This document shows positions 4,811 through 41,197 of a DNA stretch of 41,197 nt, one piece after another. Source of the DNA: Acidobacteriota bacterium (GTDB taxonomy: Bacteria > Acidobacteriota > Blastocatellia > UBA7656). The stretch covers positions 1-41,197 of the forward strand of contig JBBPIG010000036.1 of assembly GCA_038040445.1 (NCBI GenBank), read 5' to 3'. The position numbers and the translations under genes were made by a program. A model generated the notes under the pieces. That model was not told the DNA's origin, did not search any database, and was given only the letters and a program-made list of their open reading frames with translations. Each line of letters opens with the position of its first letter. Within the stretch, counting starts at the first letter, position 1.

Positions 4811-7552
4811 TTAAGGCTTCGCTTCCATCCAGTTGCGGCCCACTCCGACATCAACCACAAGCGGCACCGCCAGAGGAAAGACCGACTCCATCTCGGCTCG
4901 AACGACCTCGGTCGCGCGATCGATTTCAATCTCGGGAACTTCAAGCAACAACTCGTCGTGAACCTGAAGGATCATTCGAGCCCCGAGCTTCTCGCGGCGA
5001 AGCCGTTCGTATACACGGATCATCGCGACCTTCACCAGATCGGCGGCCGTGCCTTGAATCGGCGCGTTGATGGCTTCGCGTTCCGCCCTCGCGCGCAATG
5101 CGTGACTGCGATTGTTGATGTCGGGTATCGGGCGAATTCGGCCGAAGATCGTTCGCACTACCCCACTCTCGCGCACCTGTTTGGGCGTCTCCTCCATGTA
5201 GTGTCGAACACCCGTGTAGGTCTGATAGTAGTCTTCAATGACTTTCTTCGCCTGAGCGCGCGTCAAGCCGGTGCGCTGCGCAAGACCGAACGGACCGATG
5301 ACGTACGGGATGGCGAAGTTGACTATCTTCGCAAGCCTGCGCGCGTCTGACTCTTCCTGTTTCGTGGTTGCGCCGAACACATCGCGGGCAGTGCGAGCAT
5401 GAATGTCTTCGCCGCGCTTGAAGGCTTCGGTCATAACCGGGTCGCTTGTTACGTGCGCGAACACTCGGAGCTCGATCTGCGAGTAGTCGGCCGACATCAA
5501 CTGATATCCGGGCGACGCGACGAACGCGGCGCGAATTCGGCGGCCAAGCTCGGACCTGATCGGAATGTTCTGAAGGTTCGGATTGGTCGACGACAATCTT
5601 CCGGTGGCCGATACTGCTTGATTCAAGGTCGTATGCACGCGCCCGGAGTGTGCATCGATCAGCTTCGGAAGCGCATCGACGTAGGTATTCTTGAGCTTGG
5701 CGATCTCTCGGTAGTCGATGATCTTTTGCGGCAACTCGTACTTGAGAGCCAGCTCTTCCAGCACATCCACCGAGGTCGATATCTTCCCGGTCTTCGTCTT
5801 GCGGCCAACTTCAAAGTTGAGCTTCTCGAAAATGTCGCCAAGCTGCGCGGGAGAATTGATATTGAACTCCTGTCCCGCGAGCTTGTAGATCTCTTCCGTC
5901 AGCCGCGCGAGTTCCTTCTCCATCTCGCCGCCTGCTTTCTCGAGCGCCGCAAGATCGATGCGCACGCCTATCCGCTCCATGTCGAAGAGAATCTCCACCA
6001 GCGGCAGCTCGATCTCGCGATAGACCTTGTCCAGCCCCATCTCTTTAATCTTGTCGCCCAAAACGCTCGTCAGTTGCAGCGTCAGATCCGCGGTCTGAAG
6101 CGCGCGCGCGGCGTCCTCGTCCCAGCCTTCGATGGCGGCGGCCATCTCCAGCCCGAGGAATTCGCGCGCGAGGTCCTGCGGCCGGTAGTTGGCTCGATTA
6201 GGATCCAGCAGGTAGGCGGCGATTAGAGTGTCGTCTTCAACGCCGTCGATGCGAATCGCCGGAATGAAATCCCGAATCCCGCCGTCGCATTCGTTTGCGA
6301 ACGCCATCAACGGAGCATCGCTCATTTCTCGCCGGCGGACGCAGCGGTCAAGCAAGGTTAGCGCGCCCTTCCAATCGTGAATCGCTTTCCTAATGAGACC
6401 ATTCTCGAGCACCTCCTTCAGCTTAAGAAGCGGGTCATGTTTCGCGTCGAACTTGACGTCGAACCTATCAAGGTCGATGTATGAGGCTTTCATTTCCTCG
6501 GGCGCGATCGCGACGCCGCACACCGCACCGTTGCGCTCGGCGATCGACAGCCCGAACCGGTCTTTCGTCCAAAGCGATTCAATAAAGCGATCCAGCTCCG
6601 CTGGTGTGCTGATGCGTGAGTAGCTTGCCTTTCCCGACTCGCGCACGGCGACGGTCGCCGCGGCTTTCCCATTTTCCGCGGCGTCAGAGAATTCCTTGCT
6701 GAGTTGGGCGAACTCGAGCTCGGAGAACAACTGGTAAGCGGCTCGCCGATCGGGGGACTCGTAGATCAATGAATTCAGATCCAGCTCGATCGGCATTTCG
6801 CAGGCGATTCTCACAAGCTCTCGCGACTGGCGTATCAAATCGACGTTGTTCTTAAGGCTCTCGCGATAAGTCTTTCGCGAAATCTCATCCGCGTGAGCGA
6901 TGGCGTTTTCGATGGCGCCGTATTGTTGGATGATTTGCTTCGCGCCTTTTTCGCCGATGCCCGGCGCGCCCGGGATGTTGTCTATCGTATCGCCCCACAA
7001 GCCCAGCAGCTCGACTACCTGATGCGGAGGCACGCCCATCTTTTCCTCGACTCCCGCGGCGTCCACCATTTTCATTTCACCGGTCCGCTCGGTGCGTAGA
7101 ATCTTCACGTGATCGGTGACCAACTGGTTCATGTCCTTATCGTTGGTGACAATGACCACGTCGAGGCCGGCGCGTTCTGCTTGAGCCGCGAGCGTGCCGA
7201 TGATGTCGTCCGCTTCGTAGCCGGACTCGCGAACGATCGGGACGCGCAATGCTTCGGACAGCCGCGCGATGTATGGAATCTGCAGGGTCAGGTCGTCGGG
7301 CATCTTGGTTCGAGTCGCCTTGTAGGATTCATACGCGTCGTGACGAAACGTGCGCTCGGGCGAATCGAAAGCGACGCCGAGGTAGTCAGGTTTCTCGGAT
7401 GTGATGAGTTTGCGCAGCATCATCGTAAAGCCGTAGACCGCATTCGTCGGAAGGCCGCGCGAATTTGAGAGGCTTGGGAGCGCGTAATAGGCGCGATAGA
7501 TCTGCGACATCCCGTCTACCAGGAACAGCCGCTTCGTTTGGGACTGGGGCAT
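4811..7552 (-). CDS. polA: DNA polymerase I
   Basis: A full-length 913-aa family A polymerase for gap filling and primer removal. The 5'-nuclease domain (about 1-290) keeps its acidic sites: LVDGMSQIYRAYYAL, ESGYEADDIIG, VTNDKDMNQLV and GDTIDNIPGAPGIGEKGA. The middle 3'-5' exonuclease-like domain (about 310-500) lacks the first DxE metal site (RFGLSIAERNG occupies it) although a later DDT remains, so proofreading is probably lost, as in Taq-like enzymes. The polymerase domain has SADYSQIELRVFAH, the O-helix segment RRLAKIVNFAIPYVIGPFGL and QVHDELLLEVP. The O helix keeps the Arg-Lys, Phe and Tyr positions but has Ala and Val where most homologues have Gly (NFG, YG). It is transcribed alone. 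Confidence 0.97.
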   Translation of the reverse strand: MPQSQTKRLFLVDGMSQIYRAYYALPSLSNSRGLPTNAVYGFTMMLRKLITSEKPDYLGVAFDSPERTFRHDAYESYKATRTKMPDDLTLQIPYIARLSEALRVPIVRESGYEADDIIGTLAAQAERAGLDVVIVTNDKDMNQLVTDHVKILRTERTGEMKMVDAAGVEEKMGVPPHQVVELLGLWGDTIDNIPGAPGIGEKGAKQIIQQYGAIENAIAHADEISRKTYRESLKNNVDLIRQSRELVRIACEMPIELDLNSLIYESPDRRAAYQLFSELEFAQLSKEFSDAAENGKAAATVAVRESGKASYSRISTPAELDRFIESLWTKDRFGLSIAERNGAVCGVAIAPEEMKASYIDLDRFDVKFDAKHDPLLKLKEVLENGLIRKAIHDWKGALTLLDRCVRRREMSDAPLMAFANECDGGIRDFIPAIRIDGVEDDTLIAAYLLDPNRANYRPQDLAREFLGLEMAAAIEGWDEDAARALQTADLTLQLTSVLGDKIKEMGLDKVYREIELPLVEILFDMERIGVRIDLAALEKAGGEMEKELARLTEEIYKLAGQEFNINSPAQLGDIFEKLNFEVGRKTKTGKISTSVDVLEELALKYELPQKIIDYREIAKLKNTYVDALPKLIDAHSGRVHTTLNQAVSATGRLSSTNPNLQNIPIRSELGRRIRAAFVASPGYQLMSADYSQIELRVFAHVTSDPVMTEAFKRGEDIHARTARDVFGATTKQEESDARRLAKIVNFAIPYVIGPFGLAQRTGLTRAQAKKVIEDYYQTYTGVRHYMEETPKQVRESGVVRTIFGRIRPIPDINNRSHALRARAEREAINAPIQGTAADLVKVAMIRVYERLRREKLGARMILQVHDELLLEVPEIEIDRATEVVRAEMESVFPLAVPLVVDVGVGRNWMEAKP

Positions 7553-32733: not shown

Positions 32734-32775
<42 letters not shown>

Positions 32776-32898
32776 ACAGATTTGAGCAAATAGCCAAAAC
32801 CGCTTGATTCTATTTGCAATATCGGCCTTTTATATTCTAGCAGTTACGTTGAAGCTTATAGAAGTCTGTAGAAAGCTGTTGATCTTGGAGGCTTTGAC

Positions 32899-32919
32899 CA
32901 TCTACAAAATTATCTACAG
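32899..32919 (+). repeat. 21-bp island-end direct repeat, left copy
   Basis: The unit contains TCTACA twice, 12 bases apart, separated by AAATTA. The right copy is at 40692-40712 in the same orientation and identical over 21 bases. A TGTAGA (reverse complement) lies nearby at 32867. Candidate arm-type recombinase sites. Confidence 0.75.
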
Positions 32920-33001
32920 CGGATCTTTATCGTCGTTCATATATCAGTCTCCTTTCATCATCGTTCTCGTTTTGTGTACGTTCATAATAATGATTCAGTC
33001 A

Positions 33002-33040
33002 GAACAAAAGGTCTCTCCACCACCGGCCGGTTAAGAGACC
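33002..33040 (-). terminator. intrinsic terminator of the ubiquitin-like operon
   Basis: Read on the minus strand, GGTCTCT and AGAGACC form a 7-bp stem around a loop that itself contains CCGGCCGG, and TTTTGTT follows directly. It lies 64 bases after the stop of the 73-aa gene, so it should end the leftward operon. Confidence 0.75.
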
Positions 33041-33103
33041 AAGCCAACGGAATGAGGAAAAGACTCCTGCAAGCGGAGTTTGTAATATGAGAGTCGGTTT
33101 GAC

Positions 33104-33325
33104 TTACTTTTTTAGCTTCTCCACAAGCTCGTGCAGGGAGACTACCTTGTGACGATCGAGCGCGGTGTCCAGGTGCGCATCGCCTCGCATGCCGATGTCT
33201 ATGTTGTATTGCTCCTCGATGGTATCCACTCTTGTATCGCCACGTTTCTCCCGGAGCTCGCCTGTCTTGTTTCTTGAACGTTGGCCTCTCATACCTGGCG
33301 CATCATGTAAAACCTTCTTTGACAT
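33104..33325 (-). CDS. 73-aa basic protein, last gene of the ubiquitin-like operon
   Basis: The ATG follows an excellent GGAGGTG site. The protein starts MSKKVLHDAPGMRGQRSRN, then has the pattern TGELREKRGDTRVDTIEEQY, a middle GMRGDAHLDTAL, and a C-terminal helix VSLHELVEKLKK. I recognise this layout (R-RN--G-x-R-KRGDT, then a D--L-T-L, then SL--L) from many short unannotated bacterial proteins, but no function is known to me. It lies 29 bases after DUF6527 and before the operon's terminator. It could be an accessory factor, a regulator or even a conjugation target. Confidence 0.75.
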   Translation of the reverse strand: MSKKVLHDAPGMRGQRSRNKTGELREKRGDTRVDTIEEQYNIDIGMRGDAHLDTALDRHKVVSLHELVEKLKK

Positions 33326-33354
33326 TTAAACCACCTCCTCAATCTCAAACTGAA

Positions 33355-33717
33355 TTACACCCAGTCTATCCGATTCTTTCGAATCCAAAAATGACTTCCG
33401 CACGATGTGGCTACAATCGAGGGTGGCACACTCAAGGATTGCCCTGCGCCCATCGTAACACTCCAGTGTGGCCGGAAACTCTGCATCAGATTAAGTGCAA
33501 TGACCTCGCCGCAACGACAGGGACATTTGAAGCGCAACCATTTGAACCTCTCGGGGGAACCGATCAGGACGAGCTTGCGCTCGGTCAGAGCCTTACTTGG
33601 ATCTACGTCGGCCTCGCAAATTGTCACACCCTGAAAGGAGTGAAAGCGCCGTAGTCGCTTCCACCAGTCCCGAACTGAAGTAATGAGACGCCCAATTTGT
33701 AGTTTGACGTTTATCAT
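33355..33717 (-). CDS. DUF6527 family zinc-binding protein
   Basis: A 120-aa protein. The ATG overlaps the stop of the E1-JAB gene in an ATGA, so translation is coupled; a longer frame to 33816 is therefore not used. The signature is present: CPCRCGEVIALNL (Cys65, Cys67, Cys69), an aromatic HWSVTMG, and PPSIVATSCGSHFWI with Cys106 and His109, a plausible zinc site. DUF6527 proteins occur beside bacterial ubiquitin-like conjugation genes and have been proposed as accessory or E3-like components; this is from memory of the family and not proven here. Confidence 0.8.
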   Translation of the reverse strand: MINVKLQIGRLITSVRDWWKRLRRFHSFQGVTICEADVDPSKALTERKLVLIGSPERFKWLRFKCPCRCGEVIALNLMQSFRPHWSVTMGAGQSLSVPPSIVATSCGSHFWIRKNRIDWV

Positions 33718-35111
33718 TCTTTCGAAACGAGGGTTACATCGCCGATTTGATCTGGCCAAGTCAAACCAAGAAAATCTCTTCGATCCCCCACACCCCAAAG
33801 TTCTGTCTTTGCACAAATGCAGTCTGGTTTTGGAGCCGTCCGATTAGTCCTGATCGCAGTCTCGTGAAAGAACATTAGTACTTCCGAGGATTGCCGCCCT
33901 TCGCCCATAAATCCGGTAAGTCGGTGGAGAAACTCAGAGACAGCCTGCGCGGCCACGGCAGTGGTGAAGGTAATAACGGCTGGGTTCTGTGTCTCAAGCT
34001 GCGGCGCATAGTGCTCATCGACCAAAAGCTGTCGTTCTTCCGGTGAAAGCGATTCGAGTCTAATTGCATCAGACGAAATCCTCTCGCGGCAAAAAAGGCA
34101 AGCCTCGCCTGGGAGCAACGTTGTGACACGGCCGTTGATTCCACGAATGATTTGCTCCGGCGCATCAATCTTGACCCCTAGGTCAAAGACAGGAATCATG
34201 TACTGCAAAGCAACTTGAACCAAGATTCCTCGTGGTGCCTGCTTATCCGTGGTGCCAAAGATAATGTCGCAGACACGTAACTGCTTGGCGGTTTCTTCCT
34301 CGGTAATGTTACGCGGGTACGTTCGCACAACCGTCCCGAGACCAATGCTCGAAGCGTGCGCGAAGGAGATTTCCGCCTTGTTCTTCCCCTCGTCCGAGAT
34401 GCTTGATCCGTAAACCCTGGTGACATTGGAGCTCTCGAACTGTTCGCCATCAAAAATGGAAATTTTACCGACACCGAGCCGGATAAGTTGTTCCACAACG
34501 GGAGAACCGGTGCCACCGAGTCCAACGACTCCAACATGAAGTCGTTGGAGCAGGCGTTGGATTTCCGGTCCGAAGGCACGCACGTGACGGTCGAAGAAAT
34601 CCGGGAGGGGCGTCTCATCCGCGATAAAGGTCTGAAAACGGAATCTCTGACCGATCGTTCGAATTCGGGCAACTTGCCCCCAGCCATTCCCGGACCAAAT
34701 GCGGCAATTCGCCAGAGTACCGGGTGTAAGGACTAATGAACCATGCGGAACACCAGGGACTCGAGCCGAGAAAAATTCGACCAGCTTGGGTTCTTCGCGA
34801 TCATCCTGCTCAGAAAAATCCGGCGGTCCGAAAGGGTGCCCGTGAGCAAAAATGATCGATGCGCCGATCGCGCGAGCGCGCTTGGCGACCGATGCGTAGG
34901 AGGCAGAATCAATCGAGAGTCGATAAGGCTCTCTACGCAGGTAGTGCGTCTCTGCAACAGGAACTATTTCCCGCACTAGCAATCGCGTTTCGTCTTCTGT
35001 GACGCTGCGTCCACAGAGCAAGTACGCCGCCCCCTCGAGTCCTTGCCGGGAGAAAACGGCTTCTTCAAGCCGGAAGCGAGCGCCTTCTAATAAGGTTAAT
35101 GAATACTGCAT
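33714..35111 (-). CDS. fused JAMM protease - ThiF/E1 activating enzyme
   Basis: A 465-aa fusion. The N-terminal JAB/JAMM domain (about 1-150) has the zinc motif HGHP with His90 and His92, then Ser100 and Asp103 in PDFSEQD, plus a likely Glu26. The ThiF/E1 domain (about 180-420) has the nucleotide motif VVGLGGTGSPVVEQL (197-202), IFDGEQFESSNVTR, CDIIFGTTDKQAPR, and a zinc site of CLFC (338-341) and CIC (431-433). Thus one protein can both adenylate a Ubl C-terminus and cleave or trim Ubl linkages. It lies 6 bases after E2. Known relatives are in the polyUbl/E2/E1-JAB operons described by comparative genomics. Confidence 0.93.
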   Translation of the reverse strand: MQYSLTLLEGARFRLEEAVFSRQGLEGAAYLLCGRSVTEDETRLLVREIVPVAETHYLRREPYRLSIDSASYASVAKRARAIGASIIFAHGHPFGPPDFSEQDDREEPKLVEFFSARVPGVPHGSLVLTPGTLANCRIWSGNGWGQVARIRTIGQRFRFQTFIADETPLPDFFDRHVRAFGPEIQRLLQRLHVGVVGLGGTGSPVVEQLIRLGVGKISIFDGEQFESSNVTRVYGSSISDEGKNKAEISFAHASSIGLGTVVRTYPRNITEEETAKQLRVCDIIFGTTDKQAPRGILVQVALQYMIPVFDLGVKIDAPEQIIRGINGRVTTLLPGEACLFCRERISSDAIRLESLSPEERQLLVDEHYAPQLETQNPAVITFTTAVAAQAVSEFLHRLTGFMGEGRQSSEVLMFFHETAIRTNRTAPKPDCICAKTELWGVGDRRDFLGLTWPDQIGDVTLVSKE

Positions 35112-35117
35112 CAGACT

Positions 35118-35501
35118 TTAGCCTTTCGCCTGAAGCTCTTTTTGTATGAGGGCCAAAAACATCGGCAGGCCATCGACTCCGGCCCGCCAAGGCGTTGTAG
35201 TGAGGTGCCGTGAAAAGCGTTGCCAACGCTGGCCGCAATGATCTTCGAAAGTGCTGGCCGCCTCAGGATACTCGCCCGTACTTCTTAGTTTGATCTCTGG
35301 GGCCACATAGAACATATCCAGCCCAGCAATGTTGTACTGCGCTGGGATCCGAATCATCAGTTCTGTCTGGGCGGAATCAAACAAGGCCGTCGAAACGGCA
35401 AAGTTCGAAATCACGAGGCACGCACCGTTTCCGTCAGAAAGCAGTCGCCACGCGTATCCCTTACTATTGAGATATGTCTCGTCATCTTCCGGAAGCTGCA
35501 T
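35118..35501 (-). CDS. E2-like ubiquitin-conjugating protein (prokaryotic E2 family E type)
   Basis: A 127-aa protein. The ATG at 35499-35501 has GGGAGG 8 bases upstream; the longer frame from 35567 would overlap the Ubl gene much more and is not used. After an N-terminal helix and strands (GYAWRLLSDGNGACLVISN) comes the core MIRIPAQYNIAGLDMFYVAPEI, then FEDHCGQRWQRFSRHL, and a C-terminal helix after WRAGVDG. This pattern fits the prokaryotic E2 family E, which lacks the classical HPN motif. The candidate catalytic cysteine is Cys89 in the EDHCGQ segment; Cys28 is the alternative. It would accept Ubl from the neighbouring E1. Confidence 0.82.
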   Translation of the reverse strand: MQLPEDDETYLNSKGYAWRLLSDGNGACLVISNFAVSTALFDSAQTELMIRIPAQYNIAGLDMFYVAPEIKLRSTGEYPEAASTFEDHCGQRWQRFSRHLTTTPWRAGVDGLPMFLALIQKELQAKG

Positions 35502-35763
35502 TAGCTTGGCCTCCCGGATTGATTTGCTTCGGGGCGCTGTAGAAGTGCATCCCTGGTTCGAGGGCAACCGAATCGTTGTCCTCTACCTTCACATCATCTC
35601 CGGGTCCTGGCACCACTCGAAAAAGATCCCGGTCGGCGCCGATCGGTGGCTCCGCAAGTGCTCGGAGTTCGGCACCGGTCATTGGAGTCTTGGGCGCCTT
35701 GTACGGCTTGTGGTCGATCTGAATAGGAATAAACTTCTTGTCCTCATCATGTGGTTTGTCCAT
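35482..35763 (-). CDS. ubiquitin-like modifier (multiubiquitin-type domain)
   Basis: A 93-aa single-domain protein and first gene of the leftward operon. A beta-grasp pattern is visible: FIPIQIDHKPYKAPKTPMTG, ELRALAEPPIG, DLFRVVPGPGDD, then a strand ending GMHFYSAP. This matches the multiubiquitin (polyUbl) domain, here as one copy. Residues 84-85 are Gly-Gly, followed by an 8-residue tail (QANAASGR), so maturation would be needed to expose GG. The stop lies inside the E2 gene (20-bp overlap), and the GG codons form part of the E2 ribosome binding site. AGGAG precedes the ATG. Confidence 0.85.
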   Translation of the reverse strand: MDKPHDEDKKFIPIQIDHKPYKAPKTPMTGAELRALAEPPIGADRDLFRVVPGPGDDVKVEDNDSVALEPGMHFYSAPKQINPGGQANAASGR

Positions 35764-35914
35764 TTTGGCAGTCTCCTGGTTAGAATCGTCTTAGCGTCCT
35801 TGACACACCAACAGGAAGTTCCTATGCTGTATCAGGACAAGCTCATAGTAGCAGGAAACAAAAATATCTGTCAACACTGACAGGATATCTCCATCCTTAA
35901 ACAGGAATACATCA
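35764..35914. promoter_or_regulatory. divergent promoter/operator of the island
   Basis: The 151-base gap between the Ubl operon and the XRE operon. CAGGA occurs five times in the plus orientation at 35812, 35833, 35852, 35881 and 35902, with spacings of 21, 19, 29 and 21 bases, about two helical turns. A palindrome CTGTCA-ACAC-TGACAG lies at 35868-35883, and AGGAAGTTCCT at 35813-35823. These are good candidate operators for the adjacent XRE repressor, controlling both operons together. Confidence 0.65.
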
Positions 35915-36271
35915 ATGGGTGACCTATACTCCTTTATTGGAGCGAAGATTCGAGAACTACGTCGAAGCTATGGCGGCACGGGTATCAGCCAGGAGGGGCT
36001 CGCGATTGCTATGAAGAAGACGCCCAACACAATCTCTCGTTGGGAAACGGCTTCATACAAGCCAACGATTAGGGACCTGCATAAGCTGGCTCAGTTCTTT
36101 GGGGTAAGCATCTCCGTGTTTTTCCCCACGGCTGAAAACTCGAGACTCCAAGCCTTAATGAGCGCGACGGGTGACCTCGACGACGAGGACCTAGACGAGC
36201 TGACGCGCTATGCCCAATTTCGTAAGGCTCGGAAGGCTCTCAACGAATCGAGTAAACGAAAGAAGCGGTGA
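35915..36271 (+). CDS. XRE family transcriptional regulator
   Basis: A 118-aa repressor-like protein. The helix-turn-helix is at about 6-62 (IGAKIRELRRSYGGTGIS, then LAIAMKKTPNTISRWETASYKP). A C-terminal helical tail (about 75-118) is rich in Asp/Glu then Lys/Arg. It is the first gene of the rightward operon and is followed after 4 bases by the ImmA/IrrE-type gene. This pairing is typical of systems where the protease cleaves the repressor on a cue, as with ImmR/ImmA or DdrO/IrrE. It probably controls the divergent Ubl operon. Confidence 0.9.
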   Translation: MGDLYSFIGAKIRELRRSYGGTGISQEGLAIAMKKTPNTISRWETASYKPTIRDLHKLAQFFGVSISVFFPTAENSRLQALMSATGDLDDEDLDELTRYAQFRKARKALNESSKRKKR

Positions 36272-36275
36272 TCCG

Positions 36276-36929
36276 ATGAGTCGTTCGATATACTACGCCG
36301 AGATGCGCTCTCTCGCTCAAGCAAAGCGAGCGCAATACAATGTTGAGACAGCGGCGCTCAATCTGCGTTTTGTGCAAGGTATCTACAGAAACGAAGGTAT
36401 CAAGATCGACTATTGGGATACGAAGCGTAGAAAGATCCGTGCCGCATATTTCTGCGACGACGGCGACTTCTCAGTAATGATCAACAAGAGTCTGCCGCGT
36501 GAGCCAAAACTCTTCGCGCTTGTTCACGAACTAAAGCACCACTACAAGGACCAACTGCTAATTCAAGCTGGCGAGATAAGGTGCGGTGACTATAATGCTG
36601 GCGAGCTCATCGAGAAAGGAGCCGAGGTCTTTGCGGCAGAGTTCATCTACCCAGAAGCAGAAATGCAACTGTTACTGGAGGAGTTAGCTATAACCACCGA
36701 AAATTGCTCGCCCGAGAGCTTAGTGGAGGTTAAGAGAACCTGCGGCGCAGTGGTGAGTTACACTTTCTTGGTAAAGCGTTTCGAGTGGCTTGATCTTATT
36801 GAGCGCGGTGAATACTCCAAAGTACAATTCACGAAGCTAGAAGAATCCATCTACGGACCCGCTTTTTACAAGCAAGACTGGTTTAAGCAAAGTCGAGCGC
36901 GCAAGACCGGCCGACGGGTAACTCCTTAG
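36276..36929 (+). CDS. ImmA/IrrE-type metalloprotease
   Basis: A 217-aa zinc protease. The ATG at 36276 is 4 bases after the XRE stop; the longer frame from 36210 would overlap XRE. The HExxH site is HELKH (His84, Glu85, His88) in LVHELKHHYKD, and a further acidic segment EKGAEVFAAEFIYP supplies the third ligand, as in IrrE/ImmA. The C-terminal part (about 130-217) is helical and basic at its end. Known relatives cleave the cognate XRE repressor, so the likely substrate is the upstream protein. Confidence 0.9.
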   Translation: MSRSIYYAEMRSLAQAKRAQYNVETAALNLRFVQGIYRNEGIKIDYWDTKRRKIRAAYFCDDGDFSVMINKSLPREPKLFALVHELKHHYKDQLLIQAGEIRCGDYNAGELIEKGAEVFAAEFIYPEAEMQLLLEELAITTENCSPESLVEVKRTCGAVVSYTFLVKRFEWLDLIERGEYSKVQFTKLEESIYGPAFYKQDWFKQSRARKTGRRVTP

Positions 36930-37023
36930 AATCACTGAGTCCAGCAAAATCAAACTCCTGCTGCCGGCGGAGTAACGCCAGCTTGGTGGTGCGATTCGCT
37001 GTTGGGATATGAGTTGATCCAAT

Positions 37024-38253
37024 ATGACAAATTGGTTAATGGCAGCTTCCATTCACAGCACTGACATACAACCAATGTACATCGGCAAGCCCTGGCCCTA
37101 TCGAGTGGCACCAAACGACAGACTCGTAGCGGGCGACGTAGTTTATCTCTTTGCGGGACAATCAGGACTGTATGGTTGGGGTTATGTAACGAAAATTGAG
37201 CGGTATCAAGACTCGGACTTAAGAAGGGAAATGCTGAAAGTCGGTGTGTCCCGTCCAGTTATCCAGGAAGGTCTTGTCACCCTTGCGGAAATAAACCAAG
37301 TGGGCGTTCTGGCAGGTATTGTGGAGCGACTCGACGGCAACTTTGCGGAGTTGTATCCCAAGGAAGTTAACGCGTTCAATTCGCTCCTGCAGTCAAAAGG
37401 TACTGAAACTCCGCCTGGCATGGCTGAGATTCAAGACCACTTCGACCGACTCGGCATTCGAGATGACTCCTCTTTTGCGCCTAAACTAGCACTTGCAATC
37501 GAGCGGTACAATCAAGCTTCGATCCTATATGCCGACCTGGACAAGTTCAAGACGGTCGATGACACATATGGTCACGAAGTCGGGGATAAGGTTATCGTCG
37601 CCGCTTTCCGGGTTGTACAAAGTGTTATTCAAGACATTGGAGAGGACTTTCGTCCTCACACTGCCGGCGACGAGATTATTCTCCTCCTTCCAAACGTCAT
37701 TGACCCTGATGCTATGGAGATTGCCGAGCGCATAAGAACAGCGATAGAGCAACATGACTTTCCCGTCATTGGTCGAGGTCGCGTGACCATAACGATCGGA
37801 GTAGCAACATACCCAGATACTTGCGCGGATTGGCAACAATTAAGAACAACTGCCGACGTGACCGCCGGACAAGCAAAGAAGGTACGTCGGAATAGAGTCG
37901 TAAGCTGCGCAGAAAAGCGCGATGCACCGCCGCATGTTACGGATCGAGACTTAGCTGATCTACAGTTAGAGCTCCAAAAGCTAGATGCAATGACTATGGG
38001 CCGTCCGACTAACGGATCGGAAATGGCCAAGATCAAGCTCCAAAAAATCTTTACAATAGAGAGAGTGGTTAAACGTCTCCAGGCCGAAGGCCGTCCGGCA
38101 ATGGCGTGGAAGCTGCAGAGGCAGATTCACGCAATTAAGATGGACGGGCGCGTAGCAACAGATTCTCAGCGCCAGATGGATAGATTGATAGATATTGAGG
38201 CTGAGAGAAATGCGCTTAGGGAAGAGGAAGAGCGAAAGAAGGACGACAGATAA
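37024..38253 (+). CDS. GGDEF-like nucleotidyl cyclase with a novel N-terminal domain
   Basis: A 409-aa protein, third in the rightward operon. Residues about 18-120 form a beta-rich domain (RLVAGDVVYLFAGQSGLYGW, GYVTKIERYQD) that is reminiscent of PUA/EVE-like folds; I am not sure. The GGDEF-like domain (about 150-290) keeps metal and substrate residues: YADLDKFKTVDDTYG with Asp171, and the signature loop AGDEI (214-218) in place of GGDEF. A Lys/Arg-rich helical C-terminus (about 300-409) ends in EEEERKKDDR. Ala at the first Gly may change product or activity. It is not a standard multi-sensor diguanylate cyclase; a conflict-system signal synthase is possible. Confidence 0.8.
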   Translation: MTNWLMAASIHSTDIQPMYIGKPWPYRVAPNDRLVAGDVVYLFAGQSGLYGWGYVTKIERYQDSDLRREMLKVGVSRPVIQEGLVTLAEINQVGVLAGIVERLDGNFAELYPKEVNAFNSLLQSKGTETPPGMAEIQDHFDRLGIRDDSSFAPKLALAIERYNQASILYADLDKFKTVDDTYGHEVGDKVIVAAFRVVQSVIQDIGEDFRPHTAGDEIILLLPNVIDPDAMEIAERIRTAIEQHDFPVIGRGRVTITIGVATYPDTCADWQQLRTTADVTAGQAKKVRRNRVVSCAEKRDAPPHVTDRDLADLQLELQKLDAMTMGRPTNGSEMAKIKLQKIFTIERVVKRLQAEGRPAMAWKLQRQIHAIKMDGRVATDSQRQMDRLIDIEAERNALREEEERKKDDR

Positions 38254-38357
38254 AAGGGATGGTGCGTCAAACAGATGATTCAGAAATTAAGATCTAAGGC
38301 AGTTACCTTGATAGCGAAGGTCCTCCGGGTTCTTTGCAAGGCTTAACCTCCCTGATC

Positions 38358-39098
38358 TCACGGCTTCGTGCCAAAGAGACCCTCAACATCAATGAACGGT
38401 ATTATGTCTATATAGTCTTCATCATCCTTTCGGTTATGGTACATAGCCATCCACCGGTACTTTTCGAGTACGTGTGGTAGTTTCGCGAATCTCCGCGCAC
38501 CCTCTTCGACGACCTCCCGGTGTCGTTCAGGAAATCTTACAGCATCTACCCGCGATGCGGGTCCGTCGGTAATGTAGCGAAAGTAATCGAGAAAGAGCAC
38601 CCCGTCCTCATCTTCTAAGATTAGGTCATCGGGAGGTGGATATGGAAAACTCCGACCTTGCTGTTGTGCTAGCTTCGCGATGGAAGGCTCCACGACCACC
38701 CTTGGGTATTTCGCGACTCTCTGCTCTAGGAGATAGCTATTGACAACACCCTCGCTAAAGACGAGTTGCTCACTTTGATAGTGCTTGCCCTGTGTGATCG
38801 CACCGCGTAGCAGCAGCCCGTATTCAACAAACATCGCTTGAGTCACGATACAGCGCCAGAACACCCAGTTCAATCCGGCAAGAGTTGGCGACCCACTCAT
38901 TATTACGGAGTCTGAGAACATCTTCGTCTGACCTTGGAAGTCCCCGCTCGGTTTATTATCCGCCCCCACATACGTCAGGGCTTTTTCCAGCGCTTCGATA
39001 ATAGGTGTTGCGTTGTCATCCCTCGCCGCTCTATCTATTAGGTCTTTGAATCCCAACACGTCAAGAAAGGCTACAATCCTCGGTTCAAACGTTCCCAT
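38358..39098 (-). CDS. class III nucleotide-cyclase-like protein
   Basis: A 246-aa protein. The start ATG at 39096-39098 follows a GGGGGGAG run; the longer frame to 39137 is not used. The N-terminus IVAFLDVLGFKDLI (Asp13) and FSDSVIM (Asp63) match the two metal-binding Asp of class III adenylate/guanylate cyclases. The segment LLLRGAITQGKHYQSEQLVFSEGVVNSYLLEQRVAKYPRVVV corresponds in layout to the cyclase core beta-strand and helix. Relatives of this compact form include uridylate/cytidylate cyclases of Pycsar defence, but I cannot show this one is of that type. It follows the TIR-like gene, 194 bases away. Confidence 0.72.
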   Translation of the reverse strand: MGTFEPRIVAFLDVLGFKDLIDRAARDDNATPIIEALEKALTYVGADNKPSGDFQGQTKMFSDSVIMSGSPTLAGLNWVFWRCIVTQAMFVEYGLLLRGAITQGKHYQSEQLVFSEGVVNSYLLEQRVAKYPRVVVEPSIAKLAQQQGRSFPYPPPDDLILEDEDGVLFLDYFRYITDGPASRVDAVRFPERHREVVEEGARRFAKLPHVLEKYRWMAMYHNRKDDEDYIDIIPFIDVEGLFGTKP

Positions 39099-39292
39099 AG
39101 CTCCCCCCAGAAACGAGACATCCGACCGCCAATACATTGAGCGACGCTCATCGGCCTCGTAACAACTTAGAGGCTGCGCCCTCGTTTGATTTCACGCCGC
39201 GACCGGAAATCTTCCTTAATAAACGCCGGCCTTTGCGGGGCCAATATCAATACCGAAGTTCCCTTTATTATCGTCGCGTCGGGATAACCACG

Positions 39293-40207
39293 TTATGTAT
39301 GATCGCTGACTCGATGTTGAATAGTATCCTTCTCGTGGACTGCCCATTCAACCAGATCATATATGATATTCGCTTCGACGAAGTTACGCGCAAAACCCGT
39401 TTCTACGAGCAAAGTGACAGCAACCGCGTCTTTGCCTGTTCTTACGCTATAAATAGTTTCCGCTAAGAGGCTCAATGGAAATTTTTCGCCTAGCTTAGCC
39501 AGGCGTTCCTTGACACTCTCAACAAGTTCGGTGGGTGCGTATGTCTCAAGCTCGCGTTGCCAGAATAGATGACTAAAGAGGTGGTTCTTTTGCTTTTCGG
39601 TCAACGATTTCCAGATATTTGCCGTAATCCGCTTCACATCTTTGTCTTGCACTTCATTTAGAGCATTCTTAATAAGGTCCAGTTCATCGGATTCAATTAA
39701 GCGTCCTCCCAAGGTATAGGCTATTTCTAGGCCTCTATTTGGAAGGACAAAGGCGGCTGGAAGCGCTCCAGAGGGATCTGCGACTGTTTCCTGAAGTGCG
39801 CGCGTCAGTTGACGCCGCATTTCTGCATTCTGCATGTCACGAGTGACGAGTACCCGTAAGCTTCTGAGGTCGAATGGGATTTCTTGAACATTGTCTGTTA
39901 TCAGTACCACTGGTTTTTGAATCCCATGCGCTAGTCCGAGTTCGTAGAACACGTTTACATTGCAGCCGGTCAGGTCTGCCAAGAGGACACCAGCCAGCTT
40001 GGTTAATCGCCAAACATCCTCCATGATCGGCGAGGGCTTGGACAGGCTGTCAGCTCTCAGTGGCTGAAGGCCCGCATCCCGAATCGCCGGCGCGTAGACA
40101 CGTCGATACCGATCATCGAAACCAGGCCCGAAAGGCATTATGACAAAGCAGAGCTTCTTAGAGTCTACGACGTGACGACGCTTGCTAGGTTGTATCCTTG
40201 AACTCAT
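39293..40207 (-). CDS. TIR/nucleoside deoxyribosyltransferase-like protein with a helical C-terminus
   Basis: A 304-aa protein. Residues 18-125 carry the pattern CFVIMPFG, PAIRDAGLQPLRAD, VLLADLTGCNVNVFYELGLAHG (Asp78, Glu89) and the segment PFDLRSLRVLV. This matches the TIR-like/nucleoside 2-deoxyribosyltransferase-like fold, with Glu89 in the position of the catalytic glutamate, so NAD or nucleoside glycosidase activity is plausible. The rest (about 170-304) is helical without clear motif; I do not see a cyclic-nucleotide-binding domain. The ribosome binding site is weak. It is upstream of the cyclase-like gene. Confidence 0.8.
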   Translation of the reverse strand: MSSRIQPSKRRHVVDSKKLCFVIMPFGPGFDDRYRRVYAPAIRDAGLQPLRADSLSKPSPIMEDVWRLTKLAGVLLADLTGCNVNVFYELGLAHGIQKPVVLITDNVQEIPFDLRSLRVLVTRDMQNAEMRRQLTRALQETVADPSGALPAAFVLPNRGLEIAYTLGGRLIESDELDLIKNALNEVQDKDVKRITANIWKSLTEKQKNHLFSHLFWQRELETYAPTELVESVKERLAKLGEKFPLSLLAETIYSVRTGKDAVAVTLLVETGFARNFVEANIIYDLVEWAVHEKDTIQHRVSDHT

Positions 40208-40762
40208 CTAGAGCGAGATATTAACTTTCTTTGTTGATATCCCCAAAGGGAGAATTAGAAGATTCGTTAATATTTGCTTTGAGGGAACACTTGAGCACCC
40301 ACTACCCTGTCGCCTTCCGTGTAAAAGCACGACATCAACCCCTACTGCTACGACAAACCCCAATGTTCCTAGGCTGTGGATAACCAGTATTGCGATAACT
40401 TGTCGTCAATGTTGACTACGACTGACATTCACCATACATTCGCTGTTACCGCTATCCTAAAACGGCTCTCACTGCCACATTCCCAACAACCAGGGCAATG
40501 GCGTTTGGCAGATTACGCGCATTACTATCAATATGCTGGTAAATCTCTTGCCGCCGCATACACCTCCACAAGTCGCAGACTATGCCTCAGCCACGAGATT
40601 TACCTTTTGAGAAAACATGGTTCTACTGCTGAGGAATATCAGGAGGAATTACCAACTTGAAATACATCGAAAAAAAACAGCGAGGCAAGATCATCTACAA
40701 AATTATCTACAGTGGGTTTTCAAGCGTGAAAAAAAGAGGCTGTATATTATTGAAAATAAAGG
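40208..40762. other. AT-rich right end of the island
   Basis: This stretch of 555 bases holds the promoter of the leftward TIR-like gene and the arm-like repeat at 40692-40712. The frame 40376-40660 has no supported start or family. A GGAGGAATT at about 40641 precedes a short frame, but the product is only an AT-rich fragment running into tRNA-Arg. I see no integrase. Confidence 0.5.
40692..40712 (+). repeat. 21-bp island-end direct repeat, right copy
   Basis: Identical over 21 bases to 32899-32919, ending 50 bases before the attachment core. See the left copy for the unit structure. Confidence 0.75.
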
Positions 40763-40836
<74 letters not shown>

Positions 40837-40992: not shown

Positions 40993-41050
40993 ATAAGCAG
41001 GACCAATTCTAAAGGAGCACAGAGCGCGGGTCAATGAGTCGAAAGTCAGA

Positions 41051-41197
<147 letters not shown>

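What the first reader, a model, noticed from the sequence alone, without database searches (positions are those of the whole stretch)
33002..35763. Ubiquitin-like conjugation operon: Ubl, E2, fused JAMM-E1, DUF6527, small protein
Seen: five leftward genes with overlaps or gaps under 30 bases, starting from one promoter and ending in an intrinsic terminator. They are a single-domain Ubl with an internal GG, an E2 of the family-E type, a JAMM domain fused to a ThiF/E1, DUF6527 and a 73-aa protein. Known: Ubl/E2/E1/JAB sets exist in bacteria (Bil system; polyUbl operons), and some Bil operons defend against phage. Inference: this is a complete conjugation-deconjugation cassette, with the JAMM-E1 fusion doing both activation and processing. 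The exact gene set, fused enzyme and repressor/protease control may be a little-studied variant.
Basis: partly seen in the sequence, partly recalled or inferred. Interest (0 to 1): 0.92.

Follow-up and report, generated by a model that had tools for sequence, protein, structure and literature searches.

The report
Bacterial ubiquitin-like (Bub) operon
This is a member of a recently described bacterial family of ubiquitin-like tagging operons (Bub), sitting on a small genome island beside a repressor-protease pair of a kind linked to DNA damage; it is of a known kind, with an E2 enzyme that carries no family-conserved cysteine but an invariant serine-histidine pair.

Summary
The five leftward genes exist as described. 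The set is a Bub (bacterial ubiquitination-like) operon: the JAMM-E1 fusion matches solved Citrobacter BubCD (6e-31) and the E2 matches Citrobacter BubB (1e-9). In 28 of 31 comparison loci all four core genes (Ubl, E2, JAMM-E1, DUF6527) occur together. The divergent HTH + M78 pair resembles CapH+CapP, a controller already reported beside Bub operons (PMC13373217). So the fusion and the repressor/protease control are typical, not new.

Two corrections. (1) The E2 has no conserved cysteine: the window's Cys89 is private, while Ser97 and His99 are invariant in 32 of 32 rows; serine (oxyester) chemistry is more likely than thioester. The window's E1 has Thr287 where 30 of 31 rows have Cys. (2) The 73-aa gene is not core: none of 31 comparison loci has it; some relatives sit beside TIR or Fic genes.

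The operon lies on an ~8-kb island bounded by 42-bp direct repeats of tRNA-Arg. Anti-phage function is unproven.

The parts
35482..35763 (-). Ubl (BubA-like), one Multi_ubiq domain, ends ...INPGGQANAASGR: Gly-Gly plus 8-residue tail
   Evidence: Pfam PF14452 6.3e-8; aligned with 10 relatives, 9 of which end within four residues of the last aligned Gly
35118..35501 (-). E2 (BubB-like), Prok-E2_E; Ser97-Arg-His99 motif, private Cys89
   Evidence: Pfam PF14462 3.2e-36; PDB 9eae/9eav Citrobacter BubB; column counts
33714..35111 (-). JAMM-E1 fusion (BubCD-like): JAMM E26,H90,H92,S100,D103; adenylation G-x-G-G-T-G-S, D221,N229,R232,K245,D289; Thr287 in place of a near-invariant Cys
   Evidence: ThiF 6.2e-32, Prok-JAB 1.9e-4; PDB 9ea4/9ea5/9eav Citrobacter BubCD; alignment A1, column counts
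33355..33717 (-). DUF6527 protein; invariant Cys65, Trp85, Pro99-Ser100, His109
   Evidence: Pfam PF20137 6.5e-19
33104..33325 (-). 73-aa accessory protein of a small uncharacterised family
   Evidence: no match in Pfam, PADLOC, NCBIfam or PHROGs; relatives L068, L090, L065, L091
33001..33040 (-). candidate intrinsic terminator (inverted repeat 33010-33040 plus T-rich tail)
   Evidence: tail read by eye
35845..35874 (-). candidate promoter TTGACA-18-TACTAT
   Evidence: not above shuffles by count
35868..35883 (.). dyad CTGTCA-GTGT-TGACAG overlapping the -35 box, candidate operator
   Evidence: listed there as a stem; no longer dyad found by script; role inferred
35915..36271 (+). HTH repressor, CapH-like
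   Evidence: HTH_3 3.5e-10; PADLOC capH 4.8e-7, but RmrA 7e-9
36276..36929 (+). M78 metallopeptidase with HExxH (HELKH), CapP-like (ORF open from 36210)
   Evidence: Peptidase_M78 3.1e-8; PADLOC capP 8.5e-7, but PDC-M69B 6.1e-9; motif read by eye
37024..38253 (+). island gene: GGDEF protein with an unassigned N-terminal region
   Evidence: PF00990 1.1e-24
38358..39137 (-). island gene: 259-aa protein of unknown function
   Evidence: no Pfam family; phrog_23933 3.4e-37, unknown function
39293..40207 (-). island gene: TIR / nucleoside-deoxyribosyltransferase-like protein
   Evidence: PADLOC 'Effector' TIR 2.6e-9; Pfam Nuc_deoxyrib_tr 0.022, below cut-off; Rcl N-hydrolase 0.003
32734..32775 (-). 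distal direct repeat: copy of the tRNA-Arg 3' part (att-like)
   Evidence: 42 of 42 identical
40763..40804 (-). proximal direct repeat inside tRNA-Arg(TCT) 40761-40836
32899..32919 (-). 21-bp inner direct repeat CTGTAGATAATTTTGTAGATG, copy 1
   Evidence: only two copies in the genome at up to 3 mismatches
40692..40712 (-). 21-bp inner direct repeat, copy 2

Best explanation
A Bub operon on an ~8-kb island integrated at a tRNA-Arg gene. SHOWN by sequence: gene content, order, homology to Citrobacter BubB and BubCD, complete JAMM and adenylation residues, invariant E2 Ser-x-His without a conserved Cys, a divergent HTH + M78 pair with CapH/CapP matches, 42-bp island repeats. INFERRED: the CapH-like protein represses the divergent promoter; DNA damage or phage activates the CapP-like protease, which removes the repressor. 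The JAMM half trims the 8-residue tail and exposes Gly-Gly; the E1 half adenylates it with ATP; the Ubl passes to E2 Ser97 as an oxyester (His99 assisting) and on to target proteins; the JAMM half, and perhaps DUF6527 (invariant Cys, Ser, His), remove it again. The target and the outcome for the cell are unknown; defence is the most likely role. The 73-aa protein is an optional accessory shared with other mobile or defence-type loci.
For: Pfam set; PDB BubCD 6e-31 and BubB 1.3e-9, profile 4e-21. 28 of 31 comparison loci carry all four core genes; the loci were fetched by E1 or E2 hits, so this is not an unbiased rate. DUF6527 without an E2-E gene lies beside a ThiF E1 in 7 of 10 loci examined. 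HTH + ImmA/IrrE pairs are annotated near 7 of the first 14 plasmid loci (L054-L060). E2 column 93 Ser 32/32, column 95 His 32/32, best Cys column 7 of 31. PADLOC capH/capP matches. Published Bub-CapHP link: PMC13373217 passages.
Against: No activity data and no structure model. CapH/CapP matches are weak (4.8e-7 and 8.5e-7); the HTH matches RmrA better (7e-9) and the peptidase matches PDC-M69B better (6.1e-9), and neither window protein found a relative by phmmer at 1e-3 among the other loci fetched. E1 Thr287 departs from 30 of 31 rows and E2 has Ser where 29 of 31 rows have Pro (column 35). Ser97 as nucleophile rests on conservation; its distance to the conserved Trp is 8 residues in the window but varies among relatives, and the Ser could be structural. 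Bub operons have not been shown to protect against phage (PMC13373217). The 73-aa gene is absent from the other Bub loci.
Confidence: 0.8

Rival explanations
1. Canonical thioester cascade: E2 Cys89 (and an E1 cysteine) carry the Ubl.
For: Window E2 has Cys89 a few residues before WQRFSRH.
Against: Cys89 occurs in no other of the 32 aligned rows; no E2 column has Cys in more than 7 rows; in the E1 no column between the CxxC and CxC pairs has Cys in 8 or more rows, and its one near-invariant Cys is Thr in the window.
Confidence: 0.1
2. A Bil-type anti-phage operon, as the first reader suggested by comparison.
For: Same four enzyme classes (Ubl, E2, E1, JAMM); PMC12687455 names both as complete sets (passage).
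Against: JAMM and E1 are one protein here and the closest solved proteins are BubCD and BubB. That Bil has separate JAMM and E1 genes is recalled, from no call; no Bil protein was compared here.
Confidence: 0.04
3. Sulfur-carrier biosynthesis (ThiS/MoaD-like) rather than protein conjugation.
For: E1 matches ThiF-type adenylyltransferases, best NCBIfam adenyl_thiF 6.7e-18.
Against: That score is far below its cut-off (64.8 against 275.25 bits); an E2 is present; no thiamine or molybdopterin family was matched by the island genes scanned.
Confidence: 0.03
4. A decaying, inactive copy.
For: E1 Thr287; no integrase recognised on the island.
Against: All five reading frames open with tight junctions and plausible ribosome-binding sites (by eye); the fully invariant residues of E1, E2 and DUF6527 are kept.
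Confidence: 0.08

Closest known systems
Bub operons (Citrobacter BubB, BubCD; PDB 9ea4, 9ea5, 9ea8, 9eae, 9eav)
   Same: E2-E family enzyme, fused JAMM-E1; in the Citrobacter freundii plasmid locus L069 also a multiubiquitin Ubl and DUF6527 in the same order; CapW or CapH+CapP control reported
   Different: Ubl has one domain and is a separate gene (three Ubl domains fused to E2 in L069); E1 24% identical to that of L069 and keeps CxxC...CxC cysteines that L069 lacks; Thr287; extra 73-aa gene
Bil (BilABCD) systems
   Same: Ubl + E2 + E1 + JAMM enzyme classes
   Different: Fused JAMM-E1 here; Bil details recalled, no Bil protein compared here
ThiF-DUF6527 operons without E2-E (L139, L140, L141, L143, L144, L146, L147)
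   Same: E1 adenylation domain beside DUF6527; Ubl recognised in 2 of the 7 (L140, L141)
   Different: No match to the E2 profile, and the E1 match covers only the adenylation part (columns about 169-325)
Type II CBASS Cap2/Cap3
   Same: E1/E2 and JAMM chemistry (recalled; the E1 shows weak PDB matches to Cap2); CapH+CapP was first named as CBASS-associated
   Different: No CBASS-type cyclase matched among the operon and island genes scanned

Membership tests
Bub | E2 homologous to BubB | tested here: met
   1.3e-9 single sequence, 4e-21 profile
Bub | JAMM fused to E1, homologous to BubCD | tested here: met
   6e-31 over residues 9-402
Bub | Ubl gene with Multi_ubiq domain in the operon | tested here: met
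   PF14452 6.3e-8, above cut-off
Bub | Associated controller (CapW, CapH+CapP or CapK+CapS), present in part of the family | tested here: inconclusive
   HTH + M78 pair in the right place, but PADLOC ranks other families above capH and capP; frequency from PMC13373217
Bub | Ubl conjugation activity and its chemistry | not testable with these tools
   Ye et al. 2026 not held; a serine/oxyester result is recalled, not read
Bil | JAMM and E1 as separate genes (recalled) | tested here: not met
   one 465-aa protein holds both
Type II CBASS | CD-NTase in the operon | tested here: not met
   no such match among the operon and island genes scanned
CapH+CapP controller | HTH repressor next to M78 peptidase with HExxH | tested here: met
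   HExxH by eye
CapH+CapP controller | ssDNA-activated cleavage of the repressor | not testable with these tools
   stated for CapH+CapP in PMC13373217
Canonical E2 | Conserved catalytic cysteine | tested here: not met
   best Cys column 7 of 31 rows; window Cys89 private

The most novel reading that the evidence does not exclude
A wholly cysteine-independent ubiquitin-like pathway (E2 Ser97 oxyester, E1 without its near-invariant Cys) in which DUF6527 is the esterase that reverses the tag, and the 73-aa protein, shared with TIR- and Fic-type loci, is the dedicated substrate or effector that the Ubl switches.
Probability: 0.08. Interest if true: 0.75.

Novelty: new member of a known kind. Interest (0 to 1): 0.38.

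Why it matters
It adds a Bub operon whose E1 is only 24% identical to that of the Citrobacter freundii plasmid locus yet keeps the invariant Ser-x-His of an E2 family without a conserved cysteine, and it is a compact test case (single Ubl, separate E2, clear tail to be trimmed). The natural Thr287 variant tests whether the E1's near-invariant cysteine matters. The island repeats and the TIR-like neighbour place the operon on mobile, defence-type DNA, which bears on the open question of what Bub does.

Tried and rejected
Bil membership (set aside: fused JAMM-E1, BubCD/BubB matches). Cysteine E2 (rejected on conservation). The 73-aa gene as a core component (rejected: in none of 31 comparison loci). 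DUF6527 by PDB sequence search: single sequence only hits at E 0.19 or worse, profile no hit. Ubl by PDB sequence: no hit. Phage collection: no match for the E1. IMG/VR: 3 loci for the E1 and 1 for the E2, which lies on the same contig as one of the three, not studied further; none for the 73-aa protein. The genome-contig scan gave 25 loci; only L003 (47%, residues 1-452) was carried on; L004 (28%, residues 49-432) and 23 partial matches, largely to the E1 domain, were left out. Of the 12 loci from other genomes those of G173, G251 and G205 were left out, and only G398 was added (G038 was already in); the E1-domain-only matches were left out. Of 14 DUF6527 places without an E2-E hit, ten were examined and those of G105, G157, G299 and G354 were not. 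Two of the three other hits (L066, L067) did not return with the profile and were taken as chance. A dyad scan of the divergent promoter by script returned nothing at its threshold. The empty integration site was not found: in the same-genus genome the DNA beside the tRNA has no blastn match to the island or the window flank. Papers: no held paper has both 'ubiquitin-like' and 'DUF6527' or the three terms with 'BubE'; none of the 15 papers listed mentions DUF6527; the two primary Bub papers are not held. Taxonomy of the window's organism was not established; its genome kin are unnamed.
Full report
OBSERVATION. Pfam recognises Multi_ubiq (6.3e-8), Prok-E2_E (3.2e-36), ThiF (6.2e-32) with Prok-JAB below its cut-off (1.9e-4), and DUF6527 (6.5e-19); the 73-aa protein matches nothing. 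The JAMM residues E26, H90, H92, S100, D103 are invariant across 12 aligned sequences, the window included, so the JAMM call stands in spite of the weak Pfam score. An inverted repeat with a T-rich tail follows the last gene, and a promoter-like pair of hexamers precedes the first (the count of such sites does not exceed shuffles).

WHAT IT IS. Sequence search of the Protein Data Bank gives Citrobacter BubCD as the best match of the JAMM-E1 (6e-31, residues 9-402) and Citrobacter BubB as the only match of the E2 up to E = 1 (1.3e-9; 4e-21 with a nine-sequence profile). Bub (bacterial ubiquitination-like) is described in PMC13373217, of which I saw passages: of 544 Bub operons, 219 are associated with CapW or CapH+CapP and 59 with CapK+CapS. 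A review passage (PMC12687455) also names Bub. The two primary Bub papers (Ye et al. 2026; Gong et al. 2025) are not held and I saw them only as references.

CO-OCCURRENCE. I collected 31 comparison loci: L003, 14 plasmid loci from E1 hits (14 of 153 records), six plasmid loci from E2 hits (six of 88 records) and ten unnamed-genome loci from E2 or E1 hits. Iterated profiles find all four core genes in 28 of 31; L073 and L084 lack a DUF6527 match and L082 lacks a Ubl match (the L084 contig is only 4,998 bases long, the L073 E1 matches only in part, and the E1 of L070 and L082 is split between two frames but was counted). Because the loci were found through E1 or E2 this is not an unbiased rate. 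Starting from DUF6527 instead: 22 of 392 genomes of the phylum have a match (21 over the cut-off; 1 of 14 control genomes) and 13 of 396 have Prok-E2_E (12 over the cut-off; 0 of 14 controls); nine genomes are in both lists. Of ten DUF6527 places without an E2-E hit that I examined, seven have a ThiF E1 match next door and two of these a recognisable Ubl; three have neither (one of the three lies at a contig end). So DUF6527 travels with Ubl-E1 sets more widely than with this E2. Among the first 14 annotated plasmid loci, seven (L054-L060) have an HTH plus ImmA/IrrE pair nearby; others have Fic, small DNA-binding proteins or nothing recognisable.

CATALYTIC RESIDUES. In 32 aligned E2 rows no column holds Cys in more than 7 rows, the window's Cys89 is found in no other row, and Ser97 and His99 (of WQRFSRH) are present in 32 of 32, as are Asp62, Trp105 and Asp110. 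In the window Ser97 lies eight residues before Trp105; from memory this is the spacing of catalytic Cys to Trp in ordinary E2s, but relatives differ (six in L055, nine in L003), so the spacing is only a hint. In the E1, the invariant adenylation residues are kept; the CxxC cysteines are present in 24 and 25 of 31 rows and those of the CxC pair in 15 of 29 (His in five more) and 26 of 30; between the pairs no column has Cys in eight or more rows. The near-invariant Cys of the FGCTD motif (30 of 31 rows) is Thr287 in the window alone. I recall that the primary Bub paper reports a non-canonical, serine-based mechanism, but could not read it. DUF6527 has Cys65, Trp85, Pro99-Ser100 and His109 in 30 of 30 rows, compatible with a hydrolase or a metal site; neither is shown.

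UBL TAIL. The window's Ubl ends PGGQANAASGR. Of ten aligned relatives nine end within four residues of the last aligned Gly; L063 also has an eight-residue tail (the L003 row was given short of its end). The tail overlaps the E2 start, so trimming by the JAMM half before activation is the natural reading; it is inferred.

CONTROL. The divergent genes 35915-36271 (HTH) and 36276-36929 (M78, HELKH) match PADLOC capH (4.8e-7) and capP (8.5e-7), though the HTH matches RmrA (7e-9) and the peptidase PDC-M69B (6.1e-9) more strongly, and neither has a phmmer match at 1e-3 in the other loci fetched. A short dyad overlaps the -35 box. CapP cleaving CapH on binding ssDNA is stated in PMC13373217.

THE 73-AA GENE. 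It is in none of the 31 comparison loci. Relatives: between a divergent HTH + ImmA/IrrE pair and a TIR protein on Bradyrhizobium plasmid pBBta01 (L068); a Mesorhizobium plasmid, no defence gene annotated next to it (L090); the C-terminal part of a protein beside TIR proteins on an Acidithiobacillus plasmid (L091, weak, 7e-6); beside Fic (L065); and two further genomes of the phylum without a clear context (L153, L154). In 392 genomes of the phylum only four, the window's included, have it. So it is a rare, optional accessory, in part of the cases beside defence-type genes.

ISLAND. A 42-base stretch of tRNA-Arg(TCT), from the anticodon loop to two bases short of the annotated 3' end, is repeated perfectly at 32734-32775, 8,029 bases away, and a 21-bp repeat lies inside each end and nowhere else in the genome at up to three mismatches. 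The island holds the Bub operon, the HTH/M78 pair, a GGDEF protein, a 259-aa unknown and a TIR-like protein. GC is 50.2% inside against 58.1% in the rest of the window. No integrase was recognised among the island genes scanned; the genome has nine Phage_integrase matches, none on this contig. The same-genus genome did not show the empty site.

VERDICT. A well-formed member of a known kind. Mechanistically the serine-x-histidine E2 and the E1 Thr287 are the points worth testing; a role in defence is likely from context but unproven.

Noticed in passing
32734-40804: ~8-kb tRNA-Arg island with 42-bp direct repeats and 21-bp inner repeats but no recognised integrase; how it moves is unexplained.
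   Followed up: partly
39293-40207: TIR / nucleoside-deoxyribosyltransferase-like protein on the island (PADLOC TIR effector 2.6e-9); 77 plasmid records hold a partial match.
   Followed up: partly
37024-38253: GGDEF protein with a 150-residue N-terminal region that no Pfam model recognises.
   Followed up: no
38358-39137: 259-aa protein of unknown function matching phrog_23933 at 3.4e-37.
   Followed up: no
L118:5142-6033: In a same-family genome the matching tRNA-Arg appears split: its 5' and 3' parts lie about 640 bases apart with a LAGLIDADG-like ORF (5280-5900, by eye) between them; Rfam found only the neighbouring tRNA.
   Followed up: partly
L050:6679-7578, L051, L052, L053: In four plasmid Bub loci a further gene follows DUF6527; the L050 copy, the only one scanned, matches an SDH-type ClpP-like serine protease (5.2e-17). 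Fic genes are annotated upstream in all four.
   Followed up: partly
L055:4100-4327; L063:6778-7023: DUF2188 genes directly beside Bub operons (Pfam for L055).
   Followed up: no
41000-41197: Dense repeats of CTGCCTACCGCCTT-like units at the right edge of the window, partly masked in the contig beyond it.
   Followed up: no
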